DNA of 64,000 nt from Candidatus Omnitrophota bacterium (GTDB taxonomy: Bacteria > Omnitrophota > Koll11 > Duberdicusellales > 4484-171). This document shows, one piece after another, positions 16,836 through 60,870 of this stretch. The DNA lies in NCBI GenBank assembly GCA_030692055.1, contig JAUYCY010000120.1:1-64000 (forward strand). The letters are read 5' to 3'. The position numbers and the translations under genes are program-made. Below the pieces are notes generated by a model that worked only from the letters and a program-made list of their open reading frames with translations, did no database searches and was not told the DNA's origin. Every line of letters begins with the position of its first letter. Position 1 is the stretch's first letter.

Positions 16836-16839
16836 CTTT

Positions 16840-19072: not shown

Positions 19073-19081
19073 TTTCTCTCC

Positions 19082-19843: not shown

Positions 19844-19844
19844 T

Positions 19845-20951: not shown

Positions 20952-20952
20952 T

Positions 20953-38592: not shown

Positions 38593-40071
38593 TTATCCTA
38601 TCCTGATTGATGAAAAAATTTCTTTTACTAATCTTATGGGGTTACTAAATAATTTCTGAATTATTTTACCAAAAAGTAAAAATGGATGTGACCTATAATA
38701 TTCCCTTCTTAAAAAAAAGTAACTTTGCTGACAGATTTTTTTAATATCTTCCCCCGTCCAGTTTTCTGTGGAGATACTGAAGCTTTTAATATGTAAGTTG
38801 TCGAGAGAATAATCTTTGGATATATACCCTTTTTCGAGACACAAATTGTATAATTCTGACCCGGGATAAGGCGTAGCAATAGACACAAAAGGATTATAAA
38901 TACCCACCTCTTTTACAAAACGGAAACTATCCCACATCTGACTCAACGTCTCCCCCGGAACTCCTAATATTAAAAAAATACCAACATCCAAACCTATGCT
39001 CTTTGCATATTTAATTAATGGCTTAACTTTCTTTAAATTTAGTGGTTTCTTTATCAAGTTATTTAAAACCTCCTGATTTCCTGACTCTATAGCAAAATTC
39101 AATTTATAACAGCCGGCCTGTTTCATTTTATCAATTAGTCTCTCGTTTAAAGCAAAAGCTGCCACGCCATTAGGGGTATCCCATTTAAAATTAAATTTTT
39201 CCTCTGTCATAAGGTCGAATATTCTCTCTGCCCTAGAGACATCTAAGGTTACATTATCATCTTCGAACAGTAGCTCCTCGATTCCATGCCGGTCTCTAAG
39301 TTGTTGCATTTCTTGAATAACATTTTCTGGTGACCGACTACGATACCCTCTACCCCAAACTTTATGAGCAGAACAAAAAATGCATTTCGCCGGACATCCT
39401 CTTGAGGTAATAATAGGAGAAAATCTTCTATATCTTCGTTTGCCATGAGAAAATTCTAAACCAAAATACTTCTCCATATTTAATAAATGTCTGGCAGGAA
39501 AAGGAATGCTGTCTAGATCTTGAATAAAATCTATCCTGGGTATAATCTTTACGTTACCGTTATCCCTGAAAGCAATACCGTTTAGGGTATTTATATCCTT
39601 TTCCATCTCTAGACATGATATTAAATCAGTAATAATTGATTCGCCTTCGCCCAGCACAACAAAATCAACATTTTTATCTTCCATCGCCAGCTCAGGCATT
39701 GCTGTCGGATGTGCCCCTCCGGCAACAGTAACAATAGCTCTGTTTATCTGTTTGGCTATTTCGTATATCTGGTGGGCATTTTTTCTCTGCTTAGTAAACA
39801 GATTATTAACCCCAACTATATCCGGCTGGAACTCAGCAATAACTCTCTCTATTTCATTAACTGGGCTACCTATTCTAATCGTCTCATTGTCAATATCTTC
39901 TCGTTTATCCCAGCCCTCAATGAGGCAATCATATATCTTTACATCTATATCACGACTTTCCAAGACAGCGGCTATATAACCTAACCCTAAAGGAGGAAGC
40001 GGGTTGATATCGATTCCATTTTTTGCTGTAAAAGCAGGTGGTATAAATAAAAGGGCTTTTTTTATCTTCAT
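38593..40071 (-). CDS. Cobalamin-binding-domain radical SAM protein
   Basis: A 492-residue protein. The N-terminal B12-binding-like domain has PPLGLGYIAAVL, AGGAHPTAMPEL and GEGES; the radical SAM core has Cys226, Cys230 and Cys233 in CPAKCIFC, then EDDNVTLD. Closely similar in architecture to the protein at 24150-25553. Substrate unknown. It follows the large GT-B-like gene by six bases and precedes the DegT gene by six. Confidence 0.85.
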   Translation of the reverse strand: MKIKKALLFIPPAFTAKNGIDINPLPPLGLGYIAAVLESRDIDVKIYDCLIEGWDKREDIDNETIRIGSPVNEIERVIAEFQPDIVGVNNLFTKQRKNAHQIYEIAKQINRAIVTVAGGAHPTAMPELAMEDKNVDFVVLGEGESIITDLISCLEMEKDINTLNGIAFRDNGNVKIIPRIDFIQDLDSIPFPARHLLNMEKYFGLEFSHGKRRYRRFSPIITSRGCPAKCIFCSAHKVWGRGYRSRSPENVIQEMQQLRDRHGIEELLFEDDNVTLDVSRAERIFDLMTEEKFNFKWDTPNGVAAFALNERLIDKMKQAGCYKLNFAIESGNQEVLNNLIKKPLNLKKVKPLIKYAKSIGLDVGIFLILGVPGETLSQMWDSFRFVKEVGIYNPFVSIATPYPGSELYNLCLEKGYISKDYSLDNLHIKSFSISTENWTGEDIKKICQQSYFFLRREYYRSHPFLLFGKIIQKLFSNPIRLVKEIFSSIRIG

Positions 40072-40077
40072 TTGGGG

Positions 40078-42048
40078 TTAGTTCAATGCCTCTATTTTTT
40101 CCAGGAATTCGCTATCGCTATTAAAGAAAGTAAAATAATCATTGATAAAATTGTAACAGGCATCATAATCCAAGAGCTGAAAATGCTTCAAATGAACGGT
40201 TGCTACTTCTCTTAGCTTTATCGGTGTTTTAATAAACTCAACCAACTCACACAGACCTCTTAACGGATTCATATTTAAATAAGTAGATAATAACACAGAT
40301 AATACTGGAAGGCGGTAGGCTATTGCCTCAATCGCCGCAGAAGAAACATTCGTTATAACTACCTTTGAATCTTTCATTAATTCAGAAAGGGGTGTATTTA
40401 CAAAATCAAATAATTTCTCGTCAAACTTAACATCTAAACCTTTTAATATTGTCTCTATCGGCGTATCGGGATGCCCCTTAATCACAATTTTATAACCGCT
40501 CTCTCCTTTAAAAGCTTGATAAAGGTAATATAATAATTCGCGGGATTCCCCAGGCAAGATTGACAAGGCAACTAAAATTTTATCTTTCCTCTTTTGGTCA
40601 CAATTATTTACGGCGTTTTTAAGATGTTGATATCTCAATGCTCCGGAAAAAAATAATCTCTCTCTGGGCCAACCGCATTCGCTAAAAAGCCTATTTGTAA
40701 CTCTCCCAGAGCATCCTAAAAAATCTGGCTTCGGCATACAACTAATAATGTTCTTATTATCTAACTCGGAAGGGCTATTGAAATAATGCAGCAATAATAA
40801 TGGCACCGTGGCATGCTGGAGTGCGATTATTTTAAGGCCCTTAACTTTATTTCCAGCGCAGACAAGAACCTTTTCCCAGGCATGCATCTCTGATAGATAA
40901 AGCACCTTGGTATTATGTCCCAAAGCAAGAAAGACATTTGTAAATACCCGAGAATAATATAGCGCTTCCATTAATGTCTTTCCGCAAAAAGAACTTAACC
41001 AGTCGCTCGCAAACAGCGGCCATATTATTAATTTATCTCTATACCTAAATCCTTTCTTGATTTGTGGACGAATTAAAAGAAATCTGAAAGAAAAATATAG
41101 GTGGTCTACGAGAATGCGAAGCAAATCAGAAAAACCTACCCATTCCTCACAAACAAATAAATTGTCTCCCCATTCATTTATTTTATTTGCTAAATTTAGC
41201 GACTTACTGAAATCAAACCCTTCTTCGTCTACAACCATAGCTAACCAACTGTGGCTATTTTCTTCATTTTTCCTTAAGGCTACCTGAAGCGGCCCATAAT
41301 ATCTATTGATAAATTTATTAAAATCCAGCGCCTTCTTGTCTACTAGTGGAAAATATGTCACCGCTAAATATTTACTATTTTTTAATTTAGCGATTCTATC
41401 TTTCTGTCTTTTCATATTACATCTGGCAAGGACAAACCTTTTTAATAAAGAAAACAAGAAAAAAAGAAGATTAGTAGTAATAGCGATGGAAATAGAAAAT
41501 GGTTGTCTTCTTGCGCGGGCATTAAAATTATGTATTTTTAAAGGATAAGTTCTAGTATTAACGCGAATCGATTCATATAATGCAAGATTACCGATATCCA
41601 TCCAAACTTCCTTACATCTTTCATTATCAATAATATCCATGATCGCAATAAATTTTGCGAAATTATGAAAACTGATTGTCTTCAAGGTATTTTTCTCGGC
41701 AATTAAGGAAAACCACCATATTGAGAAATCTTTAAAAGGGTACTTGAAATAGTACTTTAGGGTTCTATTGTTGATCTTAAATTCTGAAAAGTCTGAAATA
41801 AAATTAACAAAATCGCTGCGCAGGGAATAACCTACCTGATTAAAAATATCTGGGAAATCAATTAACTTAATTTCTGCTTGCGATATACTAGCCAATTTTT
41901 CCCTTACAACAGAAATCGTTCCGTCATTAGTGGTTAAGGGACAGAGGATAAACTTTGCGGCTTCCAATTTTTCTGCTTCTCTAAATACCTTTGGCAGAGA
42001 AAGGCTGTCATCAAATACTAACAGAACCGTTTTTACTTGTCTAGTCAT
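40078..42048 (-). CDS. Large GT-B-like surface-carbohydrate protein with HP and SS motifs (candidate CMP-sugar transferase)
   Basis: About 656 residues. The N-terminal half is not recognisable to me; a hydrophobic or basic stretch lies near residue 200. The C-terminal half contains KGHP (His526-Pro527) and NVSSAAIEA (Ser569-Ser570), spaced as the HP and SS motifs of bacterial polysialyl-, sialyl- and Kdo-transferases and of capsule-synthesis relatives. The start is uncertain: ATG 42048 overlaps the cytidylyltransferase stop as ATGA and has GGGGA upstream, while ATG 42063 lacks any site. Coupling to a CMP-transferase gene supports a CMP-donor transferase role. Confidence 0.55.
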   Translation of the reverse strand: MTRQVKTVLLVFDDSLSLPKVFREAEKLEAAKFILCPLTTNDGTISVVREKLASISQAEIKLIDFPDIFNQVGYSLRSDFVNFISDFSEFKINNRTLKYYFKYPFKDFSIWWFSLIAEKNTLKTISFHNFAKFIAIMDIIDNERCKEVWMDIGNLALYESIRVNTRTYPLKIHNFNARARRQPFSISIAITTNLLFFLFSLLKRFVLARCNMKRQKDRIAKLKNSKYLAVTYFPLVDKKALDFNKFINRYYGPLQVALRKNEENSHSWLAMVVDEEGFDFSKSLNLANKINEWGDNLFVCEEWVGFSDLLRILVDHLYFSFRFLLIRPQIKKGFRYRDKLIIWPLFASDWLSSFCGKTLMEALYYSRVFTNVFLALGHNTKVLYLSEMHAWEKVLVCAGNKVKGLKIIALQHATVPLLLLHYFNSPSELDNKNIISCMPKPDFLGCSGRVTNRLFSECGWPRERLFFSGALRYQHLKNAVNNCDQKRKDKILVALSILPGESRELLYYLYQAFKGESGYKIVIKGHPDTPIETILKGLDVKFDEKLFDFVNTPLSELMKDSKVVITNVSSAAIEAIAYRLPVLSVLLSTYLNMNPLRGLCELVEFIKTPIKLREVATVHLKHFQLLDYDACYNFINDYFTFFNSDSEFLEKIEALN

Positions 42049-42794
42049 CCTCGTTTTCCCCATGGGATATCATTTTCCGTAAAACCGCGGGAGCGTAACC
42101 AGTACTCGGCTGCAGGGATCTGCCATTCATAATCTATATCGAACCCGTAGTCGTTCATCAAGGCATATGATTTCCTCCCCATCCATCTGTAGGGAAGTTG
42201 GCCTTCATCCATATGAGTAAAACATCTGGCTCTCATAATCTGTACCTGGAGGTCACAGAAATAGCAATCTCCCTGGCTGTCTCTTATAGAAGTAATATTC
42301 CCTAGTAACTTCGGTTCCACAAACGGTTGGATAATATTTTCGGCATCAACCTTATGTGCCCTGGCCGGTGAAAACATATTGAATTTGCATACAGAAAAGG
42401 CAGTATCAAAATCTTTATGTTCTCTTAGTGCCTCGATTCCTTTATCAACTAACTGCGGATCGACCATAGGAGAATTGGCAAAGAATAACGCAACAATTTC
42501 TATTGTGTCGCCTACAGTCTCAACCATCTGCTTATAGGCAAAAATAAGCGAATCCTCAAGTAGGGTATCCGGCTGGGCCAACTCTTTTGGCCGAGGCAGG
42601 TATACCCCTGCATATTTTTGCCCCATTTCGGCTATAAACGGCGAATCAGTGGAAACAAATAGTTTTTCGATCATCCGGCTGTGTTTTGCTGCCAATAACG
42701 GATACTCAACCACGGGTCTGCCAAGAAGCAATTTTGTGTGCTTGCCGGGACAACCGATACTCTTATCCTTACCCACCAAAAGCGCTGCAATCAT
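42045..42794 (-). CDS. NeuA-type cytidylyltransferase
   Basis: A 249-residue member of the CMP-acylneuraminate synthetase superfamily. The nucleotide loop reads LLVGKDKSIGCPGKHTK, where classical NeuA has ARGGSKGIPGKN; then VVEYPLLAA, FVSTDS and FANSPMVDP. The divergent loop marks it as a different subtype from the NeuA at 56233-56934. It should join CMP (or CDP, if the acceptor is a phosphate) to an acidic product of the preceding genes. GGAGG lies upstream of the ATG, which also overlaps the HAD stop as ATGA. Confidence 0.8.
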   Translation of the reverse strand: MIAALLVGKDKSIGCPGKHTKLLLGRPVVEYPLLAAKHSRMIEKLFVSTDSPFIAEMGQKYAGVYLPRPKELAQPDTLLEDSLIFAYKQMVETVGDTIEIVALFFANSPMVDPQLVDKGIEALREHKDFDTAFSVCKFNMFSPARAHKVDAENIIQPFVEPKLLGNITSIRDSQGDCYFCDLQVQIMRARCFTHMDEGQLPYRWMGRKSYALMNDYGFDIDYEWQIPAAEYWLRSRGFTENDIPWGKRG

Positions 42795-43570
42795 GATTCT
42801 TTCCTCCCTTTTAAATACTGCACAAACGCATTAAAACCTGCGAAATTCTTGTATTTCTTCTTTCTGGCCATAGCTACCGAATCCTTTGAAATATATCCCC
42901 ATTTCGCAAGGCAACAATTTATATTTAACTTGAGCAGTTCGTCAAGATATGTAATGTTATCGTCTATGAACCAGACATCTTCTGGCCTGCGCCCGTTCTT
43001 AACACAGATAATCTTTACGGTTTCTGATTTTGATAAACCTCTTTCTTTAGTATAAATAAACCTATCTGCGATTTTTATGCGGTTCTGCAAGAATAGCGCC
43101 TTTACCGATCCCCTGTCTTTTGTTGTAGAAACGTAAATCTTAAAAGTCTTGCTCAATGAGCGGATACCTTCAGCTATGCCCGGATATATCTTATGGAGAC
43201 GCAACCACTTCTTGGGGTATTTTCTTCTGAAACGCTCTCTTGTTTTATAAAATTCCTTCCCAAAAGCAAGAGATTCATTCTTATATTTATTGGCCAGGTA
43301 CTTAAATTTCTTTTCGGATATCTGGTTGTTGCCTGAATCGTCAAAAGCCTTAAAAAGGATAAAATACTCTTTTGCAGGCCTCACCAGATGCCTATTCAAG
43401 AAAAAGTGCCTTTTTAATGATAGCGGCCCATCAAAGTTAAATCTCCATTTCTGCGCCATGACTCCATCTTTTAAACTTGAATATGCGTTATAAGCCACCA
43501 AGAAACACTCGTTTATGCTGTCACAGATCACTCCGTCAAAATCGATAATAAGAATGCCTTTCTTCGCCAT
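42791..43570 (-). CDS. HAD-superfamily phosphatase-like protein
   Basis: A 259-residue protein. Motif I is IIDFDGVICDS (nucleophile Asp10, acid/base Asp12), motif II VSTTKDRGS, and motif IV WFIDDNITYLDE. A helical cap of about 110 residues lies between motifs I and II. It probably removes a phosphate from a pathway intermediate. The ATG at 43570 follows the reductoisomerase-like stop by seven bases; a longer frame to 43618 would overlap it by 41 bases. Confidence 0.8.
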   Translation of the reverse strand: MAKKGILIIDFDGVICDSINECFLVAYNAYSSLKDGVMAQKWRFNFDGPLSLKRHFFLNRHLVRPAKEYFILFKAFDDSGNNQISEKKFKYLANKYKNESLAFGKEFYKTRERFRRKYPKKWLRLHKIYPGIAEGIRSLSKTFKIYVSTTKDRGSVKALFLQNRIKIADRFIYTKERGLSKSETVKIICVKNGRRPEDVWFIDDNITYLDELLKLNINCCLAKWGYISKDSVAMARKKKYKNFAGFNAFVQYLKGRKES

Positions 43571-43577
43571 CTTTATT

Positions 43578-44573
43578 CTAATCCTGGTAGAACTTAAATG
43601 TGTTACGCAACCTCTCATGAGTCTGCATAAGGTCGGATGAATTGTTTTCGCTCACCGTCTTCTTTAAATGCCTGTATCCCGATCTTCCTTCCTCTTTGAG
43701 TATTCTGGCAAAAGTACCGTTTTTGATTTTGCGCAAAATTTTCCTTATCATCTTTTTTTGAGAATCGGGGAATACTCTCTTCGCGTAATAAGCCATGCCG
43801 AACTGTGCTGTAGGTGAAGTATTATTCTGAAACACTTTGTACAAACCTACTTTTGTAGCCCCTAAAAGCAATTCTCCTATCTCACCCGACGCATACGTCT
43901 CAAGAAGGGCCACTTCTTTGCTATACCCTGCTTCTACCAAAGCGTCGTAGGATACCCTGATTGCCCTTACGATTACCGGAAGAAGAAAGTGCTCAATAAA
44001 GTGATCTACCTCAGTTTCTTCTTTAAAACTAACCTCTAAGGCACCCATTCTGGTTGCGCCGATTGCCTTTGCCATTGCCAAGACGCGTTTTTTTGCCCGA
44101 TGGGTATAATCCTGTTCTATCCCCACGAATACGGGCGCCCCCCTACCCTTTAAAAAGTATTCGCGGATCTGTTTTCCCGGCATCCGCGGAGCCATCAGCA
44201 TAACGTCGATATTTTTCGGAGTGATGATTCTCTTATACCGTATAGAAAATCCATGGGCAAATACTAGCGCCTTTCCTTTAGCGAGATTATCTCGAATATA
44301 ATTATTATACATATATTCCTGGGCGTCATCGGGTATCAACATATATATGATGGTTCCTAAACGCGCTGCCTCTGCAGGCGAAAGGAGCTTAAATCCGTCT
44401 TTGGCAACCTGCGGGGAATATCTATCTTTTATATTTCCGATTAAGACATTGATACCCGAATCTCGCATATTCAATGCCTGATTACGGCCCTGGATACCGT
44501 ATCCGATTATGGCTACTTTTTCGTTTTTAAGGTCAGACAGCCTTGCGTCTTTATCGTAATAAACCTTAGCCAT
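43578..44573 (-). CDS. Ketol-acid reductoisomerase-like protein with altered active site
   Basis: A 331-residue paralogue of class I IlvC. The N-domain begins VYYDKDARLSDLKNEKVAIIGYGIQG and has AHGF with His107. In the C-domain FKEETEVDHFIEH keeps the metal ligands Asp190 and Glu194, and Glu225 is kept. However, the APKGPG lysine is Arg130 (APRMPG), the position of the second helix Glu is Ser229, and the substrate loop SDTAEYG reads SPTAQFG. It therefore probably acts on a different substrate or only reduces. GGAG is seven bases before the ATG. Neighbours are not valine or isoleucine genes. Confidence 0.82.
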   Translation of the reverse strand: MAKVYYDKDARLSDLKNEKVAIIGYGIQGRNQALNMRDSGINVLIGNIKDRYSPQVAKDGFKLLSPAEAARLGTIIYMLIPDDAQEYMYNNYIRDNLAKGKALVFAHGFSIRYKRIITPKNIDVMLMAPRMPGKQIREYFLKGRGAPVFVGIEQDYTHRAKKRVLAMAKAIGATRMGALEVSFKEETEVDHFIEHFLLPVIVRAIRVSYDALVEAGYSKEVALLETYASGEIGELLLGATKVGLYKVFQNNTSPTAQFGMAYYAKRVFPDSQKKMIRKILRKIKNGTFARILKEEGRSGYRHLKKTVSENNSSDLMQTHERLRNTFKFYQD

Positions 44574-44575
44574 AT

Positions 44576-45610
44576 TTATTCTCCTTTTAAGAATTCTTTA
44601 TTTACTATATTTCTTGGCTGTTTTCCTAAAACGGCATCCCGCGCAGCAATAACAGCTTTACAACAAAGATCAAAACCCGCTTCTTCAGAATAAAAAGCCG
44701 CATGTGGCGATATGATTAACCTGCCCTTAATCCATTCTTCATTAGAACGCCAGCTCTTAATTAAAGAGTGGTTTTCATCAGGAGGTTCTTGAGGCAAGAC
44801 ATCTGTGGCCACTGCTTGGATAATATTATTTTTGAGCGCCCACTCGATGATATCCAGGCTCTCAAATATTGGACCCCTTGCCGTATTGACTAAAATTGCT
44901 CCCTTCTTCATCAAAGATAAAAAATCTTTATTAATCATGCCTTTTGTCTCGGATGTCAAAGGAGTATGTATTGTTACTATATCTGATTCCTTTAGGAGAT
45001 TCTTTAGTCCATTGACCCTCTTTATGCCCAGCGCCTTATCATAGCCGTCTTCTTTATGGGGATCGCAAAAAAGCACATCGAAGCCAAAAACCTTAGACCT
45101 TAAAGCTACGGCAGTGCCGATTCTGCCCAGACCGACTATCCCTAAGGCCCTCGACCTTAAGCGGTGAATCGGTATACCTAACCTCCAATTCCATTTAGAA
45201 TGGGCCTCTTTTAAGTTATCGTTATAGTAATTAATCTTCCGGGATAAACTCAGGATAAAGGCCATGGCAACATCAGCTACTTCCTCCGTGCCATAATCAG
45301 GCACATTGGCCACAGCGATTCCGTTTTCTCCTGCTAGTTTTATGTCGATGTTGTCATATCCCACAGCAAGGCTTACCACGCATTTACATTTCTTAAGCTT
45401 CTTGATGGATTTTTCCGAGACCGTCATCCCTGGACTAACTATTAAGGCGTCAACATCTTCGATATGTTTTAACATACCGATCTCGTCAGGCACGTCAAGA
45501 CAGAGACATTCGAATTCATCGGTTAGCAACTCTTTCTTTATGTCTTCGAAGCGGTTAATGTACATCGACTGCCTGTTGCCTTCTGCAATAATAATCTTGT
45601 ACTTAGACAT
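44576..45610 (-). CDS. D-isomer-specific 2-hydroxyacid dehydrogenase
   Basis: About 344 residues. The NAD-binding domain has GIVGLGRIGTAVA; the catalytic triad is Arg in NTARGP, Glu in LPQEPPDE and His in ISPHAAFYS. It belongs with SerA/PdxB/CtBP-like enzymes that interconvert 2-hydroxy and 2-oxo acids. ATG 45610 with AGGGG upstream is favoured over an in-frame TTG three codons earlier. Five bases separate it from the GAPDH-like gene and two from the reductoisomerase-like gene, implying sequential steps. Confidence 0.85.
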   Translation of the reverse strand: MSKYKIIIAEGNRQSMYINRFEDIKKELLTDEFECLCLDVPDEIGMLKHIEDVDALIVSPGMTVSEKSIKKLKKCKCVVSLAVGYDNIDIKLAGENGIAVANVPDYGTEEVADVAMAFILSLSRKINYYNDNLKEAHSKWNWRLGIPIHRLRSRALGIVGLGRIGTAVALRSKVFGFDVLFCDPHKEDGYDKALGIKRVNGLKNLLKESDIVTIHTPLTSETKGMINKDFLSLMKKGAILVNTARGPIFESLDIIEWALKNNIIQAVATDVLPQEPPDENHSLIKSWRSNEEWIKGRLIISPHAAFYSEEAGFDLCCKAVIAARDAVLGKQPRNIVNKEFLKGE

Positions 45611-45615
45611 AGATA

Positions 45616-46650
45616 TCAATTCCCCTTAAGAATAAATCTGACTATATCCAGAACTCGTGATGAATATCCCCATTCGTTGTCATACCAAATCACTAACTTT
45701 ATAATATTCTTCGCCAAGACCCTGGTCCAGCGCGCATCCACAAAAGTTGATTTCTCCGAGCTAAGATAATCCAAGGAAACAAGGTGATCATTAACAAACC
45801 CGAATGTCTTCGGCTGGGAAAGGGATAGCTGATTAAATAAGCTATTTACTTTCTGTATCGTAGTTTTCTTTTTTACGATAGCCGTAATATCCGAAGAGGC
45901 AACAATATGTGTCGGGATCCTAAAAGAAATTGCCTCTATCTTATTTTTAAGACGGGGCAAAACCTTAATGGTTGCATAAGCAGCAGTCGTATCTTTGGGT
46001 ATAAGGTTTCCCACGCCGCTCCTGCCTAAACCATAATCTCTCCAGTAATGTCCAGGGCTGGATACGGATTCAAGCGAACCGTCAAGCACATTCTGGTAGG
46101 AAAGCCAGGGGTGTAAGGTAGTAAAAAAGCAATTTTTTATTTTAAATTTTTTATCCAAGACTTTCAAAACAGGCGCAACGGCAGTGGCATCGCAGATACT
46201 GCTACTTATGATATGGTGTTTAGAGGAATTATATTTCTCTTCGTTAGCACCTAAGATAATCGTCAAATCCACTTCCTCAGGCGAATGGGTAATCACTACT
46301 TTCTTTATACCTCTGACAAGGAGCCTGCGGGACCTAAGCACATTCTTATGGATACCGGTTGCATCTATCACCACATCCACATCGTGTCTATGCCAAGGCA
46401 CTACAGAGATATCTTCCTGCGAATAAAACTTCACTTCCTTGCCGTCAATTAATAGATTACTACTACTCTTTACTTCCACTTTTCTCTTAAATCTGCCGTA
46501 AATAGAGTAATAACTAAATAAATACGCATGGTTGTCTATTAAGGGATCAATTTCGTTTATCGCCGCTAATTTTATATCCGGCGAATCGCTGATTATTCTG
46601 GTTAATGCTCTGCCTATTCTGCCGAATCCGTTAATTCCAACTCTTATCAT
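45616..46650 (-). CDS. GAPDH/erythrose-4-phosphate dehydrogenase-like enzyme
   Basis: A 344-residue protein with VGINGFGRIGR, the catalytic Cys153 in SSICDATAVAP (usual SCTTNCLAP), the catalytic His180 in TTLHPWLSYQ (usual TVHAYTATQ), and the NEWGYSSR C-terminal motif. Nucleophile and base are kept but the neighbouring residues differ, so the aldehyde substrate is probably not glyceraldehyde 3-phosphate. An Epd-like aldehyde-to-acid oxidation is a reasonable guess. TAGGAG precedes the ATG; the start overlaps the radical SAM end by 20 bases. Confidence 0.83.
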   Translation of the reverse strand: MIRVGINGFGRIGRALTRIISDSPDIKLAAINEIDPLIDNHAYLFSYYSIYGRFKRKVEVKSSSNLLIDGKEVKFYSQEDISVVPWHRHDVDVVIDATGIHKNVLRSRRLLVRGIKKVVITHSPEEVDLTIILGANEEKYNSSKHHIISSSICDATAVAPVLKVLDKKFKIKNCFFTTLHPWLSYQNVLDGSLESVSSPGHYWRDYGLGRSGVGNLIPKDTTAAYATIKVLPRLKNKIEAISFRIPTHIVASSDITAIVKKKTTIQKVNSLFNQLSLSQPKTFGFVNDHLVSLDYLSSEKSTFVDARWTRVLAKNIIKLVIWYDNEWGYSSRVLDIVRFILKGN

Positions 46651-48187
46651 ACCAATCTCCTATAAGTTTTATCTTTAATAAATTTGGTTTTATCCTCATC
46701 CAAAATACAAACAGATACCGTTCGACCGGAAAAATCAGAATATTGTATTTAAGTCGCAAAAAACATACCCTATTTAACAACTTATGCAACAAGCTACATT
46801 TCCTGTCGGGATAGTTTTTAATCATTCCAAAATAAAAATATAGTAGCTTTATCTTTTTCTGATAAGGCGTGGATATCCAGGATAAATTTTCCTCATTTAA
46901 GAAGCCCTCTTTGGTAAAGACATTTTTCCATTCATCGAGCTCATTAGGATAGTTTAAATTTCCAGACTTCGCCAACTCCTCTGACAGCGGGGAACCCGGA
47001 TAAGGCCTGAAATATGCAATGGTTATTTCGGTGCGCGGATTCAGCAATTTTATTTTGGCTGCTAAGGCAAATGTCTTGGTCATTTGATTAAGGCTTTCGT
47101 TCGGTAGTCCAATTATAAAAGTATATCTTGCCCAGTGCAGCGGGCCAGCCTGGCTTAAAAATCTTGCGGAAGATATGGTCTGCTGTGGCGTTATACCTTT
47201 ATCAATAAGCCCTAATGTCTTTGTGCTTCCGCTTTCTGCACCCATGGAAGACCAAAGCCAGCCCAATTTTGCCAGCCACTTCACCATGTCTAAATCCAGA
47301 TAATCTTTCTTAAAATGGTCTATCCTTACCCAGCTCCTCCAATAAAATCTTAAATTTTCCTTTTCTATCATTTGGAACAACTCAATCGCCCGTTTTTTGT
47401 TGATAAAAAAATCTTCGTCCATAAACCAGATAGCATTTGCGCCGTAATCAGACTGCAGCTTTTTTATTTCCTTTACAATCTGGGTTGCTTTCTTATATCT
47501 GTATTTGCGCCTTAAGATAAAATTAATGCAGAACTTACAGGAATAACAACACCCTAGCCCCGTAAGCACCGGATAAGCGACCACCTTCTCTCTTTCTAAA
47601 GGCGGAGAAAATAATGGGCTGCGCATATAACGCTGGGAATCATAAAAAGTATGGTCAAACTCTCCAATCTGTTCAATATCATCAAGGTCGGTATTGCGCA
47701 TAAAACTTATGCGCCCATTTTGCTTAAAGGCAATACCGTTTATCCCTTCTACGCTCTCACGCCTCAATAAGCGCAGGGCCAAATCCGGGATAATTTTCGT
47801 AGCTTCATCTACAACCGCTATGTCAACCAAGGGATGAGACGCTGTCTGTTCGTAAAAAAGAGTGGGATGCGGCCCTCCCCAGACAACAGGTATATCGGGA
47901 TTAACGCTTTTTACAATCTTGCTTATCTCCAAAGCCGCCGGGACCTGAGTAGTCATTACAGAACAACCTACAAAGGACACTCCTTCCTCCAAAGAATCAA
48001 TTAATAACTCTCTATAATTCTCATCGTAAGCCATATCTATAACTTCCACATCAAGTCCTTGTCTCTTTAATATAGTACCAACAACAAGCAAGCCAATATT
48101 TAAGCTAAATTTCCCCTTATCCTTATAATAATCCTGGATATTAATTAAACTGCCTGCGGGGTTTACTAAAATAACTTTATTTTTCAC
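46631..48187 (-). CDS. Cobalamin-binding-domain radical SAM protein
   Basis: A 518-residue protein with an N-terminal B12-binding-like domain (GGPHPTLFYE) and a radical SAM core with Cys213, Cys217 and Cys220 (CCYSCKFC). The C-terminal 100 residues are basic and hydrophobic (FFYF-like), hinting at membrane contact. It starts at GTG with AGGGA upstream. It is the first gene of the coupled block that continues into the GAPDH-like gene and could C-methylate or rearrange a product of that module or a polyprenyl-linked glycan. Confidence 0.83.
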   Translation of the reverse strand: MKNKVILVNPAGSLINIQDYYKDKGKFSLNIGLLVVGTILKRQGLDVEVIDMAYDENYRELLIDSLEEGVSFVGCSVMTTQVPAALEISKIVKSVNPDIPVVWGGPHPTLFYEQTASHPLVDIAVVDEATKIIPDLALRLLRRESVEGINGIAFKQNGRISFMRNTDLDDIEQIGEFDHTFYDSQRYMRSPLFSPPLEREKVVAYPVLTGLGCCYSCKFCINFILRRKYRYKKATQIVKEIKKLQSDYGANAIWFMDEDFFINKKRAIELFQMIEKENLRFYWRSWVRIDHFKKDYLDLDMVKWLAKLGWLWSSMGAESGSTKTLGLIDKGITPQQTISSARFLSQAGPLHWARYTFIIGLPNESLNQMTKTFALAAKIKLLNPRTEITIAYFRPYPGSPLSEELAKSGNLNYPNELDEWKNVFTKEGFLNEENLSWISTPYQKKIKLLYFYFGMIKNYPDRKCSLLHKLLNRVCFLRLKYNILIFPVERYLFVFWMRIKPNLLKIKLIGDWYDKSWN

Positions 48188-48195
48188 TTTATCCC

Positions 48196-50112
48196 TTAGA
48201 ACAAATCTTCTACTTTGTGAGTAGGTATACTATTTAATTTATGAGCTATAAACACCTGATGCCACGTACAGTAAGTCATTATCATATATATATATAAACT
48301 GCTGGTCCAATCAGTATCTTTTCTCCTAAAGGCATATTTTAAGAAATTTTTATTAAACGGTTTTAAGGAATAATGGTCAGAATCTAATATTTTTTCAAAT
48401 GCCGAAGCAAAAGAGCCGTTAAGCCAGCTTTGTATCGGGCCGCTAAATCCGCGTTTTGGCGCGTTCAATATCTCTTCTGGAAGGATATCTCCGAATTTCT
48501 GCCTAAGTAGAAACTTTTTTAATGTGTAGTCCGCGGATTTGGTCCAGCTGGGTATAGAACAAGCCAATTCTACTAACCGATAATCAGTAAAAGGAACGCG
48601 GCCCTCTATAGAATGTGCCATAGTTGCCCTATCCTGAATCAATAGCAACCAATCGCTCAAAGACCCCTGAAGGTCCATATTCATCATCGTATTTATGGCA
48701 TCACCGTTAAAAAGGTCTTTCCATCTTTTTGTATAGAAATTTTCTCCCGCAGTATAATCCAGGCGTTTATTAAAAAGGCTGTAGAGAATATTCGGCGTTA
48801 TGTAACTTAAGCCCATACTATAATACCAACTCATCCCTATATCGGTCTTTAAAGATGAACGTATAAGATCATAATAACCCGATAGAGCCCGATGCTTAGC
48901 CATCGATAACATGCCGTGCGATAGAAAAATAATCTTGCGAATTGCTTTTGGCAATCTATAGAAAATTTTTTGTCTATCGTCCATAAAATACTTGTGGTAT
49001 CCGGCGAATAATTCGTCTCCGCCGATACCCGCTAGCACTACTTTTACATATTTGGCAGCAAAGCCAGATAAAATATAAACATTAACGTAAGAAGGGTCTA
49101 AGATAAGTTGGTCAGAATTCCAGACTAGCTTCGGCAGGAGTGAAAAATAATCTTCTTTTTTTAAAAACATTTCATGATGATTTGAACCTATTCTTTTAGC
49201 AAATATGCTGGCTAATGGAGTCTCGTCAAAACGGTTGCCTTCCAGCTTTACCGAAAAAGTATCTATGCCCGGATGGAATTTTGCTGCGTAATATGCAATA
49301 AGACTAGAATCAATTCCCGAACTTAAATATACGCCTACTGGTACATCAGCTATTAAACGTAACTTCACAGAATCACTTAATAAATCATGAATACTAGGTA
49401 GAAGTTCCTGCAGTTTATAATCTTTCGGCGATGATTTCGTTTTAACATCGTAATACTTTTTGATTTCAATATTGCTACCACAGGCAGTCAAATAATGACC
49501 AGGCATGAGCTGTTGTATTCCTTGAAAAATTGTTCTTGGAGCCGGAACATAACAAAATTGAAAACATAACCAACGCGATAATTCATCTACCCTTGCTTCT
49601 ACCCCGGCAGCGATTATTGATTTAATCTCTGAAGCAAAAATCAGCTTTGCCGGTTCTTGATACAAATAGACCGGCTTAATGCCAAAGCGGTCGCGGACTA
49701 ACAATAATTTTTTTTTCTTAACATCCCAAATCACAAATACAAACATGCCATTTAAACAGCCAAACATCTGCTCTTGATATTCTTCATAAAGATGCGGTAA
49801 AACTTCTGTATCGCTAGAAGTATAAAATCTATGGCCTTTATCTATCAAATCCTTTTTGAGTTCCCTGTAATTATAGATCTCTCCATTCAAGAAACAAACA
49901 ATACTCTTGTCTTCATTAAATATTGGCTGGTCACCTGTATTAAGATCAATTATAGAAAGCCTTCTAAAACCCAATGCAATATCATCTCCATAAAAATACC
50001 CATCTCCGTCGGGGCCGCGATGTCTCATAATATCTGTCATGGCTCTAATGAGGTATTCGGGCTTTTCTTTTCGTCCTAAATTTTGCTGATAAATCCCAGC
50101 TATTCCGCACAT
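48196..50112 (-). CDS. asnB: Asparagine synthase (glutamine-hydrolysing) paralogue 3
   Basis: A 638-residue AsnB homologue: Cys2 nucleophile (MCGIAG), RHRGPDGDG, the PP-loop YLSSGIDSS near residue 267 and AGIGGDELFAGY, where paralogues 1 and 2 have GDGGDE. It is clearly a separate lineage from the other two copies. Probable role is amidation of a carboxylate in a sugar precursor or glycan. It overlaps the flippase end by 13 bases; GAGAGG lies upstream of the ATG. Confidence 0.88.
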   Translation of the reverse strand: MCGIAGIYQQNLGRKEKPEYLIRAMTDIMRHRGPDGDGYFYGDDIALGFRRLSIIDLNTGDQPIFNEDKSIVCFLNGEIYNYRELKKDLIDKGHRFYTSSDTEVLPHLYEEYQEQMFGCLNGMFVFVIWDVKKKKLLLVRDRFGIKPVYLYQEPAKLIFASEIKSIIAAGVEARVDELSRWLCFQFCYVPAPRTIFQGIQQLMPGHYLTACGSNIEIKKYYDVKTKSSPKDYKLQELLPSIHDLLSDSVKLRLIADVPVGVYLSSGIDSSLIAYYAAKFHPGIDTFSVKLEGNRFDETPLASIFAKRIGSNHHEMFLKKEDYFSLLPKLVWNSDQLILDPSYVNVYILSGFAAKYVKVVLAGIGGDELFAGYHKYFMDDRQKIFYRLPKAIRKIIFLSHGMLSMAKHRALSGYYDLIRSSLKTDIGMSWYYSMGLSYITPNILYSLFNKRLDYTAGENFYTKRWKDLFNGDAINTMMNMDLQGSLSDWLLLIQDRATMAHSIEGRVPFTDYRLVELACSIPSWTKSADYTLKKFLLRQKFGDILPEEILNAPKRGFSGPIQSWLNGSFASAFEKILDSDHYSLKPFNKNFLKYAFRRKDTDWTSSLYIYMIMTYCTWHQVFIAHKLNSIPTHKVEDLF

Positions 50113-51602
50113 AAAAACCTCTCTTTAACCAGCTTCATAAATATTTTATCTTTAGTAAAAGCCCTGTACATTATAAAAACAATTGCCCCCCAGCAGATAA
50201 CAGCAAAAGAGATTCTTGCTATGAAAGGTGTTAGAATATGTCCGTTGTAATATTTAAAGAAATTAACGACTGAGAAAATATAGTAATTTACGATACTAAT
50301 AAACAATACCGCAAGCAAACCCGAACAAAACAAAAATGATTCTTTACTATTTTTGAATAAATATTTCTTAGAAATAATAAACATTAATATAGATATTAAA
50401 AATTGCGCAAAAACAAAAACATATACAATGCCCATAATTCCTAATCCAATTTTAACCATAGGGTATGATAGTAAGATAATCACTGTTAGGGCTACGGTAT
50501 AAACAATATTACAAATTTTCTGTTTGTTAACTAAAGTCGAAAGCAAAATAGTGGATGGAACGATAAAAAAAACGGTAAATATAATATTAAAAGCTAAAAT
50601 TTCAAAAATCTTAATACTGGGAATGAATTTAGGGACAAACCAAAAAACCATCGCCCCAAAGCCGGCCTGAACTAAATTGGTAATAATGCAACCTATCGTG
50701 GTCATTACAACTATCATTTGAATAAATTCTTTTTGGATAAGAAGAGAGTCTCCTAATCTACCTAATTCGCTTAATATAACCGGCTGCAAAACATTTCCAA
50801 AATCAGATATTAGCTTATAAATATTATGCACATAGGCTATTGCAAAGGAATATATACCTAGCTGATTGACTGGGAAATATACCGCAATAATAGTCCTATC
50901 AATTCCCCTGAAAGCCCAGAACAAAAAGGTAAGGGCCTGTAAGGCAATTCCGGTTTTTAAAAAAGATAAGAAATTTTCTGAGCTGAAAGTAACGGTAAAT
51001 TTTAGTTTTGGCGCAAAAAAGAAAAAATAAATGATAGAAAACAATGAAACAGCCACCGGCACAGCAAGCAAACCATAAACATGGAATAGGAATACCAACG
51101 ATAACGTTAATAAGGGCGTGATTATCGTTTTAAATAAGTTAATCTTGGTAATTATATTAAATCTTTGGTAGGACCATTGGGCATTCATATATGACGAATC
51201 TATTAAATCCAGAAGCAAGCTTACGGCAACTAAAACTAAACCTACCCTTATTAAGTTGATTTTATAGAATGAGCTGGCAATAATAATTATAGCAGCTGCA
51301 ATTATATAATAAACGGATTCATAAGTTATGCAAATATTCTGGATACGAATAGCTAACTCCGGTTTTTCTTTGCCGATATAATACGGCATCTCTCTGGAGG
51401 CATAGGCAAAAAAACCCGGCCTTATCAATCGGCCGTAAAAAGCCCAAAGCATGACATAGGCAACTAACCCATAATTTTCAGGTCCGAGTTTCGAGGCAAC
51501 ATATAAAGATACGGGAACCTGAAGAACATAACCAATAATATTAGCTAAAGATAACTTGTATGAATGACGAAAAATTGATAAAGGATGCAATTTGTTTCTC
51601 AT
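50100..51602 (-). CDS. wzx: Oligosaccharide flippase, Wzx-type (MOP superfamily)
   Basis: A 500-residue, highly hydrophobic protein with about 12-14 membrane segments. The N-terminus (NIIGYVLQVPVSLYVASKLGPENYG) is characteristic of Wzx/RfbX flippases. It should move lipid-linked oligosaccharide across the inner membrane. It is the only exporter recognised in the window, which points to a Wzx-dependent rather than an ABC-dependent route, although no Wzy or Wzz is seen. ATGA overlap with the upstream gene. Confidence 0.85.
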   Translation of the reverse strand: MRNKLHPLSIFRHSYKLSLANIIGYVLQVPVSLYVASKLGPENYGLVAYVMLWAFYGRLIRPGFFAYASREMPYYIGKEKPELAIRIQNICITYESVYYIIAAAIIIIASSFYKINLIRVGLVLVAVSLLLDLIDSSYMNAQWSYQRFNIITKINLFKTIITPLLTLSLVFLFHVYGLLAVPVAVSLFSIIYFFFFAPKLKFTVTFSSENFLSFLKTGIALQALTFLFWAFRGIDRTIIAVYFPVNQLGIYSFAIAYVHNIYKLISDFGNVLQPVILSELGRLGDSLLIQKEFIQMIVVMTTIGCIITNLVQAGFGAMVFWFVPKFIPSIKIFEILAFNIIFTVFFIVPSTILLSTLVNKQKICNIVYTVALTVIILLSYPMVKIGLGIMGIVYVFVFAQFLISILMFIISKKYLFKNSKESFLFCSGLLAVLFISIVNYYIFSVVNFFKYYNGHILTPFIARISFAVICWGAIVFIMYRAFTKDKIFMKLVKERFLCAE

Positions 51603-53512
51603 GCCTTAGAATTCCGTTCTTTAACTATGGATAAAATTGTTTGCGTTGCCCTGATACAGCTTTTACCGTCGTTTAAGTGCGTCCCGCATTTACGCAAAAA
51701 TTCATCATTATCCGGAGCATTCCATAACTTAACATCTTTTAAGTATTTATCTAAGACGGAAATAAATTCTTCTATATCCTCCGAATATTCGGCACATTTC
51801 TTAACAAGTTTCTTTATCGGTTCATCAAGGACATATCCTAAGCCACTAAACAATAATACCGGCTTTCCTGCTTTTATAGCCTGAAGTAAACTTGTCTGTG
51901 GCATATCTAAAATTACAAGGTCCGAATCTAGTATAAGCTCGCGAGCGTAATAGGCATTCTTAATAATCTTTATTTTTCTTTTTTTAAAAACGGCCATAAG
52001 AGATTCTATCATTGGTGGATTTTTATAATCAAAATTAGGATGCAGCTTTAATGTAATATCATACTGAGGATATTCTAATAATTTGTTTATTATTCGGCTT
52101 TGATAATAATAATAAGTATTCTCTGGATAATATACGCCACTCCAGAAAGTAAAATTGTTACCATTATATTTATTAAAAATGTAAATAATTTTATTCTTTA
52201 CCTTTCTCGGTTTAGTAACCGGGACTTTATCTATACTTAAAGAACCTATCGAAATATATTTGGCATTTGGATTATGTTGACGGGCTAATTCAGATATGGC
52301 CTCTCCGAACATAAAATTTATTTCTGAGGATTTCCACCAACAATAGTTATTATAGTCGGTTCTATGCGTATAGCACGGTCCATGATAAAAATGAATCATT
52401 GGTATATTGCGCTCATTATGATAAAAAACAGCCTGCCTTAAATGTAAATAACAATCGTTTGAAATAACGGCCTTTATATTAAACTTTTTGCATATCAGCG
52501 GGAAGGTATAATTTACAAAGAAGATCTCTGCCAAATTATGCGTAAAAATAAACTGTAGTTTATTCTGAATTTCATGGAAATAATTAAATTTTCCTATTGT
52601 AAATATATCGCGGAAAGAATCTTTATTAATTATTTGCTCCCAAATAAGGGAAGTATCAAGATAAAACCTCCTTATGGTCTCCTCTGCATTTTCAAAATTG
52701 TAGACATTTTTCTTACATCGTAAATTATAGACTGTCCCTAATTTTCTTTTATCCAGATCCCATAGATAAAGGCCTACAGAGTATTTTCTTAATCCTAATA
52801 AATCGCATATAAGGTATTCTAATTCGTAGCCTACTGTAAGAAACAACAAATTTAAATTATAGTATTTTTTATAAAAAAAATACTCTTTGACCTTCAATAG
52901 TTTTCTTTCTATTTTTTCTAAATAATTACCGGTTATCCTTCTTTTTATGTTAGCGGACAAAAAAGCTAATTTTGGATCATGAAATTCTATACCAAATTCT
53001 TCTAAAGATTCAATTTTGCTACTATTCAGATTGACTTCTCGTATTATATTCGATAATGCCAAAACCCATGTAGACTCTTTAATAAACTGATCTCCACCTT
53101 CATCTTTGATATTTGATTTAAAATAAATTATTTTATCGGGCTTTTCGGCACTTATAATCTTATCTAATACCCTTATTTTTGATGGTATAATATTCAAAAG
53201 AGTACAAAGATTAATATAATGGTATCTTGCGGGTTTAATGTGATTCATTTGGGGATAGGTGTCTAAGAGAAATCTATCGATTTGCTCTATCTTTTTAAGC
53301 ACATAATCATGCGACTCGGTTTTCATCTGTTCGATTTCATTATTGTCAAAATAAGATTCTGGTGTTTTATGCTCGATTCCCTTTAAACTTAAAAAATGGG
53401 TTGAAGTAGGGTCTAGGGAAATAAAAACCGAGTTTGAATTTGAATATTTTTTCTTAAGTTCTATTGCGATGTCGATATGAGATTTCTCTTCCAAAAAATA
53501 TAAAACTTTCAT
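51599..53512 (-). CDS. Large GT-B-like protein with HP motif, candidate glycosyltransferase
   Basis: A 637-residue soluble protein. The first 300 residues are unrecognised. The C-terminal half has HFYHGP, IYIFNKYNG, KLHPNF (His491-Pro492) and LDMPQTSLLQA (Thr540-Ser541), an order like the HP and S/T motifs of CMP-sialic acid or CMP-Kdo transferases and capsule-synthesis proteins. The downstream flippase (ATGA overlap) and the upstream ulosonic acid cassette fit a transferase using a CMP-activated sugar. The function is inferred from motifs only. Confidence 0.5.
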   Translation of the reverse strand: MKVLYFLEEKSHIDIAIELKKKYSNSNSVFISLDPTSTHFLSLKGIEHKTPESYFDNNEIEQMKTESHDYVLKKIEQIDRFLLDTYPQMNHIKPARYHYINLCTLLNIIPSKIRVLDKIISAEKPDKIIYFKSNIKDEGGDQFIKESTWVLALSNIIREVNLNSSKIESLEEFGIEFHDPKLAFLSANIKRRITGNYLEKIERKLLKVKEYFFYKKYYNLNLLFLTVGYELEYLICDLLGLRKYSVGLYLWDLDKRKLGTVYNLRCKKNVYNFENAEETIRRFYLDTSLIWEQIINKDSFRDIFTIGKFNYFHEIQNKLQFIFTHNLAEIFFVNYTFPLICKKFNIKAVISNDCYLHLRQAVFYHNERNIPMIHFYHGPCYTHRTDYNNYCWWKSSEINFMFGEAISELARQHNPNAKYISIGSLSIDKVPVTKPRKVKNKIIYIFNKYNGNNFTFWSGVYYPENTYYYYQSRIINKLLEYPQYDITLKLHPNFDYKNPPMIESLMAVFKKRKIKIIKNAYYARELILDSDLVILDMPQTSLLQAIKAGKPVLLFSGLGYVLDEPIKKLVKKCAEYSEDIEEFISVLDKYLKDVKLWNAPDNDEFLRKCGTHLNDGKSCIRATQTILSIVKERNSKA

Positions 53513-53531: not shown

Positions 53532-54002
53532 TTAAAAATATTTATTATCGTTCAGGTATTCTAATACCTCTTGTATTACCCCCTCACCGCCTTTTGATTT
53601 CAAAATAATCTGAGCAGATTCTCTGGCCTTTCTACTAGCATTAGACGGTACAATACCTAAACCGCAATACTTTAAGGCAATAGCATCTCTATCTGAATCT
53701 CCGACGTAACAAATATCACTTAAAGATATTTGAAGTGATTTTGATAACCGTCTCAGTGCTTTTTCTTTATTTTTCGCTCCTTTTATTATATTTGTAACCT
53801 TGAGACGATTAGCTATATTATCTACAAAAAGAGAGTCTTCCCCAGTCAACAATGCTATATTTAACCCTTTATTTTTTAACCAAGTTATAGCGTCCGAGTC
53901 TCTGTAATTCAAGGACTTATATTCATTATTAAAAGCATCTATTATATACCGGCCGTCCGTGAGAATACCGTCAATATCTAATATTAGTAATTTAATTTTC
54001 AT
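53532..54002 (-). CDS. KdsC-like HAD phosphatase (type C0)
   Basis: A 156-residue capless HAD protein: DIDGILTDG (nucleophile and acid/base Asp), LLTGEDS, and GDSDRDAIAL. Length and motifs match KdsC, which hydrolyses Kdo-8-phosphate, and the related KDN-9-phosphate phosphatase. Close to NeuB, NeuA and a DegT aminotransferase, it suggests that the ulosonic acid is first made as a phosphate ester. AAGGAGGTG lies upstream of the ATG. Confidence 0.82.
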   Translation of the reverse strand: MKIKLLILDIDGILTDGRYIIDAFNNEYKSLNYRDSDAITWLKNKGLNIALLTGEDSLFVDNIANRLKVTNIIKGAKNKEKALRRLSKSLQISLSDICYVGDSDRDAIALKYCGLGIVPSNASRKARESAQIILKSKGGEGVIQEVLEYLNDNKYF

Positions 54003-54079
54003 TGAACTAATCCACCTCCTTGAGAGAACCTATTAAAACATTCTATTTTTTTATAAAAAAAATTCGCTCTAACAGTACT

Positions 54080-54914: not shown

Positions 54915-54977
54915 ATTTTATTCTCCTCCTAGAGTACAAATGCATTGATTTTATATTGAGATATTTTAGTAAATTTA

Positions 54978-56138: not shown

Positions 56139-56148
56139 CCTCCCCCCC
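56139..56148 (-). promoter_or_regulatory. G7AGG ribosome-binding region abutting the aminotransferase start
   Basis: On the coding strand seven G (56142-56148) are followed by AGG immediately before ATG. A change in G count would alter Shine-Dalgarno strength and spacing without touching the protein. The rest of the 94-base spacer is AT-rich with no clear promoter or terminator. Confidence 0.45.
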
Positions 56149-56232
56149 GTTTTAAATATAATGTATATTTTTTATTCAATAATTTTATCGATTAGCTTAT
56201 TGACAAAAACTTAAAAAAACTGATTAATTCTA

Positions 56233-56934: not shown

Positions 56935-56977
56935 GTTAATCTGCCATGATTGCTTTGTAATTAAAAGCTTACTCCAT

Positions 56978-60803: not shown

Positions 60804-60870
60804 GGCCATATACTCCAGACACCACTGCGCGGTTCTCTTTAATCCTTCCGGGAAACCTAGTTTCGGTCTT

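What the first reader, a model, noticed from the sequence alone, without database searches (positions are those of the whole stretch)
42045..48187. Coupled module of central-metabolism paralogues ending in a cytidylyltransferase: candidate pathway to a new CMP- or CDP-activated glycan unit
Seen: radical SAM, GAPDH-like, 2-hydroxyacid dehydrogenase, ketol-acid-reductoisomerase-like, HAD phosphatase and NeuA-type genes, with gaps of 2-7 bases or overlaps throughout, then a GT-B-like transferase coupled by ATGA. Known: Epd and PdxB turn erythrose 4-phosphate into 3-hydroxy-2-oxo-4-phosphobutanoate, and IlvC shifts an alkyl group and reduces 2-oxo-3-hydroxy acids. The logic of isomeroreductase plus cytidylyltransferase also parallels DXR and IspD. 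Inference: the module oxidises an aldose phosphate, converts it to a 2-oxo acid, reduces or rearranges it, and activates the (possibly branched) acid with CTP for transfer.
Basis: partly seen in the sequence, partly recalled or inferred. Interest (0 to 1): 0.85.

Follow-up and report, generated by a model that had tools for sequence, protein, structure and literature searches.

The report
Possible new bacterial sugar-acid pathway module
A tightly packed set of bacterial genes, built from altered copies of everyday metabolic enzymes, looks like a dedicated pathway that makes and CTP-activates an unusual sugar acid for the cell-surface coat; related versions in other genomes keep the same core but swap one enzyme, and the product is still unknown.

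Summary
The genes are there as described: B12-radical SAM, GAPDH-like, 2-hydroxyacid dehydrogenase, KARI-like, HAD, cytidylyltransferase, then a TIGR04326 transferase joined by ATGA. The KARI-like protein lacks the canonical IlvC lysine and ExxxE motif and carries the NAD-site and catalytic-base residues of BurG, a KARI relative with covert redox chemistry. The GAPDH-like protein keeps Cys and His but fails the GAPDH and Epd cut-offs. The cytidylyltransferase folds closest to CMP-Pse/Neu5Ac/Kdn synthetases. The module recurs: 5 of 5 GAPDH-like loci read hold the cytidylyltransferase and the dehydrogenase, while a further slot is swapped: KARI-like (window), FAH family (two related loci), HpcH/HpaI (two loci). 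Best reading: an aldose(-phosphate) is oxidised to an aldonate, then to a 2-keto acid, edited at C3, dephosphorylated and activated as a CMP-ulosonate, perhaps without PEP condensation. Recurrence and families are shown; substrates, order and product are inferred. My searches of open-licence papers found no such pathway.

The parts
46631..48187 (-). B12-binding radical SAM protein (518 aa), first gene of the packed run; probably accessory
   Evidence: Pfam B12-binding and Radical_SAM; below the cut-off of each NCBIfam model listed; no B12-radical SAM directly beside the GAPDH-like gene in L120, L132, L218; a degraded or frameshifted one (weak B12-binding and Radical_SAM matches) stands upstream of it in L222
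45616..46650 (-). GAPDH-like dehydrogenase (344 aa): catalytic Cys153 and His180 kept, the Thr after the Cys is Asp154, insertion with S-P-G-H-x-W
   Evidence: residues invariant in 23 of 23 rows of A3
44576..45619 (-). D-2-hydroxyacid dehydrogenase (347 aa; likely start ATG 45610)
   Evidence: Pfam 2-Hacid_dh, 2-Hacid_dh_C; PGDH 202.5 of 454 bits, PdxB 94.4 of 434; relatives (45-46%) beside CTP and GAPDH-like in L120, L222, L132, L218
43578..44573 (-). BurG-type KARI-like protein (331 aa): N47/D50, R130, S229, E231
42791..43618 (-). HAD-superfamily hydrolase, probable phosphatase (likely start 43570)
   Evidence: Pfam HAD_2 33.7 bits, cut-off 23.8
42045..42794 (-). CMP-ulosonate-synthetase-like cytidylyltransferase (249 aa)
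   Evidence: Pfam CTP_transf_3; model pLDDT 91.5; nearest solved folds CMP-Pse, CMP-Neu5Ac, CMP-Kdn synthetases
40078..42063 (-). TIGR04326 surface-carbohydrate protein, probable transferase with HP and S motifs, donor perhaps CMP-linked (likely start 42048)
   Evidence: 258.1 bits, cut-off 250; H531 and S574 invariant in 11 of 11 rows, HP in 9 of 11

Best explanation
The run is a dedicated pathway for an acidic, CTP-activated glycan unit, most likely a 2-keto sugar acid (ulosonic acid). Inferred steps: the GAPDH-like enzyme oxidises the C1 aldehyde of an aldose or aldose phosphate to an aldonate; the 2-hydroxyacid dehydrogenase oxidises C2 to the ketone, which makes an ulosonate directly; a swappable Mg2+-dependent enzyme working on the 2-keto acid through its C3 enolate (BurG-type KARI here, FAH or HpcH/HpaI proteins elsewhere) sets or edits C3, for example by epimerisation, isomerisation or deoxygenation; the HAD enzyme removes the phosphate, as KdsC does for Kdo; the cytidylyltransferase makes CMP-ulosonate; the TIGR04326 transferase may add it to the glycan. 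Shown: gene content, tight coupling, recurrence of the GAPDH-like/2-hydroxyacid dehydrogenase/CTP core with a swapped further enzyme, BurG-type residues in the KARI, CMP-ulosonate-synthetase fold of the CTP protein (as a model). Inferred: substrates, carbon number, order and direction of the redox steps, product. A ring-closing 2-keto acid needs at least five carbons, so a pentose or hexose phosphate fits better than erythrose 4-phosphate.
Against: No substrate, product or activity is known. HpcH/HpaI proteins are pyruvate aldolases (recalled), so in two loci the swapped gene could form the carbon chain by condensation. A NeuB gene (PEP-condensing family) starts about 0.3 kb after the dehydrogenase in L218, and the window has one at 56978-57859, so 'condensation-free' is not shown. 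L218 shows no HAD in the run, and the L132 HAD-like protein had no Pfam match. The GAPDH-like family has lost residues that bind phosphate in GAPDH (recalled numbering), so a phosphorylated substrate is unsure. The CTP protein scores below the PseF cut-off (67.7 of 205.7). The module is rare: GAPDH-like in 1 of 285, 0 of 299 and 1 of 210 genomes; BurG-type KARI at E 1e-95 in 0 of 285. Only 2 of the 25 CTP-family stretches (L120, L212) hold a GAPDH-like gene, so the CTP family alone does not define the pathway. The TIGR04326 model failed (pLDDT 38.6), its PDB match to KpsC is not significant (E about 1), and its gene lies outside the G+C block.
Confidence: 0.42

Rival explanations
1. The module makes a hydroxypyruvate- or pyruvate-type building block (GAPDH-like, 2-hydroxyacid dehydrogenase, HAD), and the swapped enzyme does carbon-carbon chemistry on it (aldol by HpcH, rearrangement by KARI-like, lyase or reverse reaction by FAH), giving a longer or branched ulosonic acid that is then CMP-activated. 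This is closest to the first reader's branched-acid idea.
For: HpcH/HpaI proteins in 2 of 5 loci; BurG reduces hydroxypyruvate; a phosphoglycerate dehydrogenase model scores best among the NCBIfam models listed for the dehydrogenase, though below its cut-off.
Against: I recognised no gene for an acceptor aldehyde in the runs (by eye only); FAH proteins are not known to me as aldol synthases (recalled); the canonical KARI lysine and ExxxE motif are gone.
Confidence: 0.25
2. CDP-linked product: the acid keeps its phosphate and the cytidylyltransferase makes a CDP-acid (as IspD or TarI make CDP-polyols), moved as a phosphodiester.
Confidence: 0.15
3. Phosphonate or phosphinate tailoring: cytidylyl activation before B12-radical SAM methylation, as in fosfomycin-type pathways (recalled).
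For: B12-radical SAM proteins flank the run; 38593-40071 scores 293 of 575 bits to a P-methyltransferase model; nucleotidyl activation is said to predominate in bacterial phosphonate pathways (title and abstract start of PMC6697681 in the listing).
Against: No PEP mutase family in Pfam scans of the 55 - strand ORFs of 110 aa or more of the window (at E 0.001), though one could lie elsewhere in the genome; B12-radical SAM not part of the recurring core.
Confidence: 0.06
4. Housekeeping valine, serine and glycolysis genes that happen to lie in a glycan locus.
For: KARI passes the TIGR00465 ilvC cut-off (267.2, cut-off 226.15); the host genome is not held.
Against: Non-IlvC active-site residues; GAPDH, Epd, PGDH and PdxB models below cut-off; conserved linkage to the CTP gene.
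Confidence: 0.03

Closest known systems
BurG, KARI-family cyclopropanol synthase of malleicyprol biosynthesis (PDB 7PCC and others; PMC9359912)
   Same: Full-length ungapped relative (232.5 bits); shares the APRM arginine, the SGE glutamate and the N/D pair that excludes NADP
   Different: No sulfonium-substrate genes seen here; a subfamily linked to a cytidylyltransferase; reaction unknown
CMP-nonulosonate synthetases (CMP-Pse5Ac7Ac synthetase 9FTC, CMP-Neu5Ac synthetase 6IFD/1EYR, CMP-Kdn synthetase 9T4Z)
   Different: 18-23% identity; own family (A2); below curated cut-offs
Kdo and sialic acid activation (KdsC/KdsB, NeuB/NeuA; recalled)
   Same: HAD phosphatase plus cytidylyltransferase, then an HP-motif transferase
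   Different: No PEP-condensing NeuB/KdsA inside the run; two dehydrogenases plus a swappable enzyme instead
Epd/PdxB start of pyridoxal phosphate synthesis (recalled)
   Same: GAPDH-fold enzyme followed by a 2-hydroxyacid dehydrogenase
   Different: Neither protein reaches its equivalog cut-off

Membership tests
Canonical ketol-acid reductoisomerase (IlvC) | Active-site Lys in APK | tested here: not met
   Arg130 here and in 121 of 121 family rows; Lys in 74 of 76 genome rows
Canonical ketol-acid reductoisomerase (IlvC) | ExxxE motif | tested here: not met
   ExxxSxE in 121 of 121 family rows (4 also match ExxxE[LMI]); ExxxE[LMI] in 69 of 73 canonical rows
Canonical ketol-acid reductoisomerase (IlvC) | Curated ilvC models | tested here: inconclusive
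   TIGR00465 267.2, cut-off 226.15: passed; PRK05479 297.2, cut-off 336: failed
BurG-type KARI | NAD-type N/D pair and catalytic-base Glu (BurG N48, D51, E232) | tested here: met
   N47, D50, E231 by the ungapped alignment
BurG-type KARI | Cyclopropanol formation from a sulfonium diol | not testable with these tools
   No assay
CMP-ulosonate synthetase | Nucleotidyltransferase fold closest to CMP-ulosonate synthetases | tested here: met
   (predicted model)
CMP-ulosonate synthetase | Curated model PseF or KdsB | tested here: not met
   67.7 of 205.7 and 24.2 of 234 bits
CMP-ulosonate synthetase | Activity on a 2-keto acid with CTP | not testable with these tools
   No assay
GAPDH or erythrose-4-phosphate dehydrogenase (Epd) | Equivalog cut-offs | tested here: not met
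   GAPDH-I 274.5 of 367.2; Epd 229.5 of 539
GAPDH or erythrose-4-phosphate dehydrogenase (Epd) | Catalytic Cys and His | tested here: met
   C153 and H180 invariant in 23 of 23 rows
4-phosphoerythronate dehydrogenase PdxB | Equivalog cut-off | tested here: not met
   94.4 of 434 bits
TIGR04326 | Family cut-off | tested here: met
   258.1, cut-off 250 bits
HP-motif CMP-donor transferase | HP motif | tested here: met
   H531 invariant, HP in 9 of 11 rows, window included
HP-motif CMP-donor transferase | GT-B-type fold like KpsC or sialyltransferases | tested here: inconclusive
   Model failed; KpsC match at E about 1
IspD-type CDP synthase | Closest fold to IspD | tested here: inconclusive

The most novel reading that the evidence does not exclude
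A second, condensation-free route to CMP-activated ulosonic acids: an aldose phosphate is oxidised twice (C1, then C2) to a 2-keto acid, and a plug-in slot filled by three unrelated Mg2+/enolate enzymes (BurG-type KARI, FAH, HpcH) sets C3, so that swapping one gene gives different acidic residues on the same CMP-donor scaffold.
Probability: 0.31. Interest if true: 0.82.

Novelty: new variant of a known kind. Interest (0 to 1): 0.62.

Why it matters
The CMP-ulosonic acids known to me (Kdo, sialic, legionaminic, pseudaminic acids; recalled) are built by condensing PEP with a sugar. A route by two oxidations would be a new logic for activated sugar acids, would point to undescribed acidic residues in glycans of little-studied bacteria, and would give the BurG-type KARI family, which automatic annotation calls IlvC, a second biological setting. 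The swap of three unrelated enzymes in one slot is a testable case of pathway modularity.

Tried and rejected
Rejected: housekeeping KARI (residues); Epd and PdxB membership; the B12-radical SAM as a core member (not directly beside the GAPDH-like gene in L120, L132, L218; a SPASM-type radical SAM does lie about 2 kb past the dehydrogenase in L132/L212); phosphonate pathway (no PEP mutase in Pfam scans of the 55 - strand window ORFs).

One search reached only the genome already known. Paper searches (15, 56, 57, 59, 103, 104 for the gene set or family; 58 for pentulosonic acid; 14 and 102 for BurG; 75 for KpsC and the HP motif) gave no description of this module in their listings; the library lacks most subscription journals. 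From PMC9359912 I read the outline, sections 8 and 9 and passages; from PMC2169525 and PMC10148158 passages; PMC6697681 in a search listing only. Fold families missing are not excluded.
Full report
What is there. Seven genes on the - strand, read from 48187 down to 40078, are packed: overlaps of 20, 4 and 4 bases and gaps of about 5, 2 and 7 bases with the likely starts: B12-radical SAM, GAPDH-like, 2-hydroxyacid dehydrogenase (2HADH), KARI-like, HAD, cytidylyltransferase (CTP), TIGR04326 protein. Families are from Pfam and NCBIfam. G+C is 0.405-0.417 from 42 to 48 kb and 0.346 and 0.360 in the blocks on either side, so the first six genes look like one cassette. No genome is held for the window, so whether separate IlvC, GAPDH and SerA copies exist could not be tested.

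The KARI-like protein is not IlvC by its residues. Automatic annotation would call it IlvC (TIGR00465, 267.2 bits, cut-off 226.15). Among solved structures canonical KARIs and BurG score about equally (5E4R 235.6 bits over two stretches, 205.7 for the better one; BurG entries 231-232.5 in one stretch; 5YEQ 229.3), but BurG aligns without a gap and shares the changed residues. BurG builds a cyclopropanol by oxidising C-alpha of a 2,3-dihydroxy acid with NAD+, forming an enolate with Glu232, and reducing it again; Asn48 and Asp51 keep NADP out (PMC9359912, sections read). The window protein has N47, D50, R130 and E231. In the window plus the 120 homologues listed (of 5519 found), D50, R130, S229 and E231 are in 121 of 121 and N47 in 116; in 76 genome rows K130 is in 74 and E231 in 3, namely L001, L002, L004. 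ExxxE[LMI] is in 69 of 73 canonical rows; ExxxSxE is in all 121 family rows, 4 of which also match ExxxE[LMI]. This wider family also occurs away from glycan genes: L221 (46% identity, beside an amidase by Pfam; no glycan gene recognised by eye in 16.9 kb) and L001 (near a PLP enzyme).

The closer KARI subfamily travels with the CTP gene. Of the 13 best KARI hits, 8 have a longest contig of 9 kb or more; 6 of these share the exact length of a listed CTP hit's contig (2 also a GAPDH hit's); the misses are P0005 and P0013. P0001 may be the window's own species. Of 37 more distant KARI hits, none does. Shifting the lengths gives a mean of 0.035 coincidences.

The GAPDH-like protein is its own family. 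Cys153 and His180 are invariant in 23 of 23 rows; the residue after the cysteine, Thr in GAPDH, is Asp in all; a loop with S-P-G-H-x-W is inserted. It fails the GAPDH and Epd cut-offs. By recalled GAPDH numbering, residues of both phosphate sites are lost. The family is rare in the genomes sampled: 1 of 285, 0 of 299, 1 of 210, and 2 of 16 in one order, one of them already known; many more members are known only as metagenome proteins whose contigs I could not read.

The core recurs with one swapped slot. I read the five distinct loci with a clear GAPDH-like member: window, L120, L222, L132, L218 (E 1e-110 or better in genomes; 48% identity for the one viral-collection contig). All five have a CTP-family gene (41-56% to the window's) and a 2HADH (45-46%) next to it. 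L120 and L222 (one order of the Omnitrophota-centred phylum): GAPDH-like, FAH family, CTP, 2HADH, HAD. L132 (an 83-kb record in the viral collection): GAPDH-like, small HAD-like protein (no Pfam match, by eye), CTP, HpcH/HpaI, 2HADH. L218 (a genome of the class of Nitrospirillum): GAPDH-like, CTP, HpcH, 2HADH, then a NeuB about 0.3 kb on and a second NeuB; no HAD seen. FAH, HpcH, HAD and NeuB assignments are by Pfam. L120 and L222 are related, so independent cases are four. The swapped enzyme is KARI-like once, FAH twice, HpcH twice; for other KARI carriers the gene order is not known.

The transferase. The window protein matches no Pfam family at E 0.001; five of 11 members weakly match a putative glycosyltransferase family (DUF6716). 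H531 and S574 are invariant in 11 rows, HP in 9, HY in 2; the 10 other rows are TIGR04326-like by clustering, 18-35% identical. The HP motif is involved in CMP-Neu5Ac binding in a polysialyltransferase (PMC2169525, passages) and is shared by beta-Kdo transferases (PMC10148158, passage). The only PDB name for the profile is KpsC at E about 1, not significant; its structure model failed. A CMP donor is plausible, not shown.

How it may work. GAPDH-fold enzymes turn aldehydes into acids; 2HADHs interconvert 2-hydroxy and 2-keto acids. In that order they turn an aldose (phosphate) into a 2-keto aldonate, which is an ulosonate. HAD plus CMP-synthetase is the standard ending of Kdo and some sialic acid pathways (recalled). 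The three swapped families share metal binding of 2-keto acids and enolate chemistry (FAH and HpcH recalled; BurG), so the slot most likely edits C3. All steps are inferred. The main rival is that this slot makes or rearranges carbon-carbon bonds; the HpcH proteins and the neighbouring NeuB genes speak for keeping it open.

Neighbours. The locus also has a conventional nonulosonate set: NeuB 56978-57859, a cytidylyltransferase 56233-56934, a KdsC-like HAD 53532-54002, DegT 54978-56138 and an SDR, beside the weakly LIC12162-like protein 51599-53512 (20.3 of 225 bits).

Verdict. Observation confirmed; interpretation right in kind, partly wrong in chemistry. Not found in print in the searches, which cover open-licence PMC papers only.

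Noticed in passing
window 54080-54914: An SDR gene is split over two reading frames (N-terminal half 54396-54914, C-terminal half 54080-54502), so it is broken or a sequencing error; described only.
   Followed up: no
window 53532-57859: A conventional nonulosonate set (NeuB, cytidylyltransferase, KdsC-like HAD, DegT, SDR) lies upstream of the module in the same locus.
   Followed up: partly
L111-L130: Recurrent loci with CTP family, radical SAM/SPASM, SDR, 2-hydroxyacid dehydrogenase, HAD and TIGR04326-like proteins, all but one (L120) without a GAPDH-like gene: a possible sister pathway.
   Followed up: partly
L111 7078-8242, L114 8082-10807, L117 4794-6767: A second, divergent cytidylyltransferase (L111, L114) next to a roughly 657-aa protein with HP and SS motifs by eye; in L117 such a large protein stands beside a metallo-beta-lactamase-like protein (by eye) and a 2-hydroxyacid dehydrogenase.
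   Followed up: no
L221 9817-10803; L001 5027-6076: BurG-type KARI genes away from glycan genes, which automatic annotation would probably call IlvC; role unknown.
   Followed up: partly
L132 1-20978: An 83-kb record of the viral collection carries a long glycan locus with the module; whether it is really viral was not tested.
   Followed up: no
window 24150-25553, 38593-40071, 46631-48187, 59106-60878: Four B12-binding radical SAM proteins in one glycan locus; 38593-40071 resembles a P-methyltransferase model (293 of 575 bits).
   Followed up: no
window 16001-22000: A second block of higher G+C (0.39-0.42) with UDP-sugar dehydrogenase, DegT, hexapeptide transferase, epimerase and C-methyltransferase genes.
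   Followed up: no
window 4640-6526, 8351-10234, 48196-50112: Three asparagine-synthase-like proteins in one locus; they may amidate sugar acids (guess).
   Followed up: no
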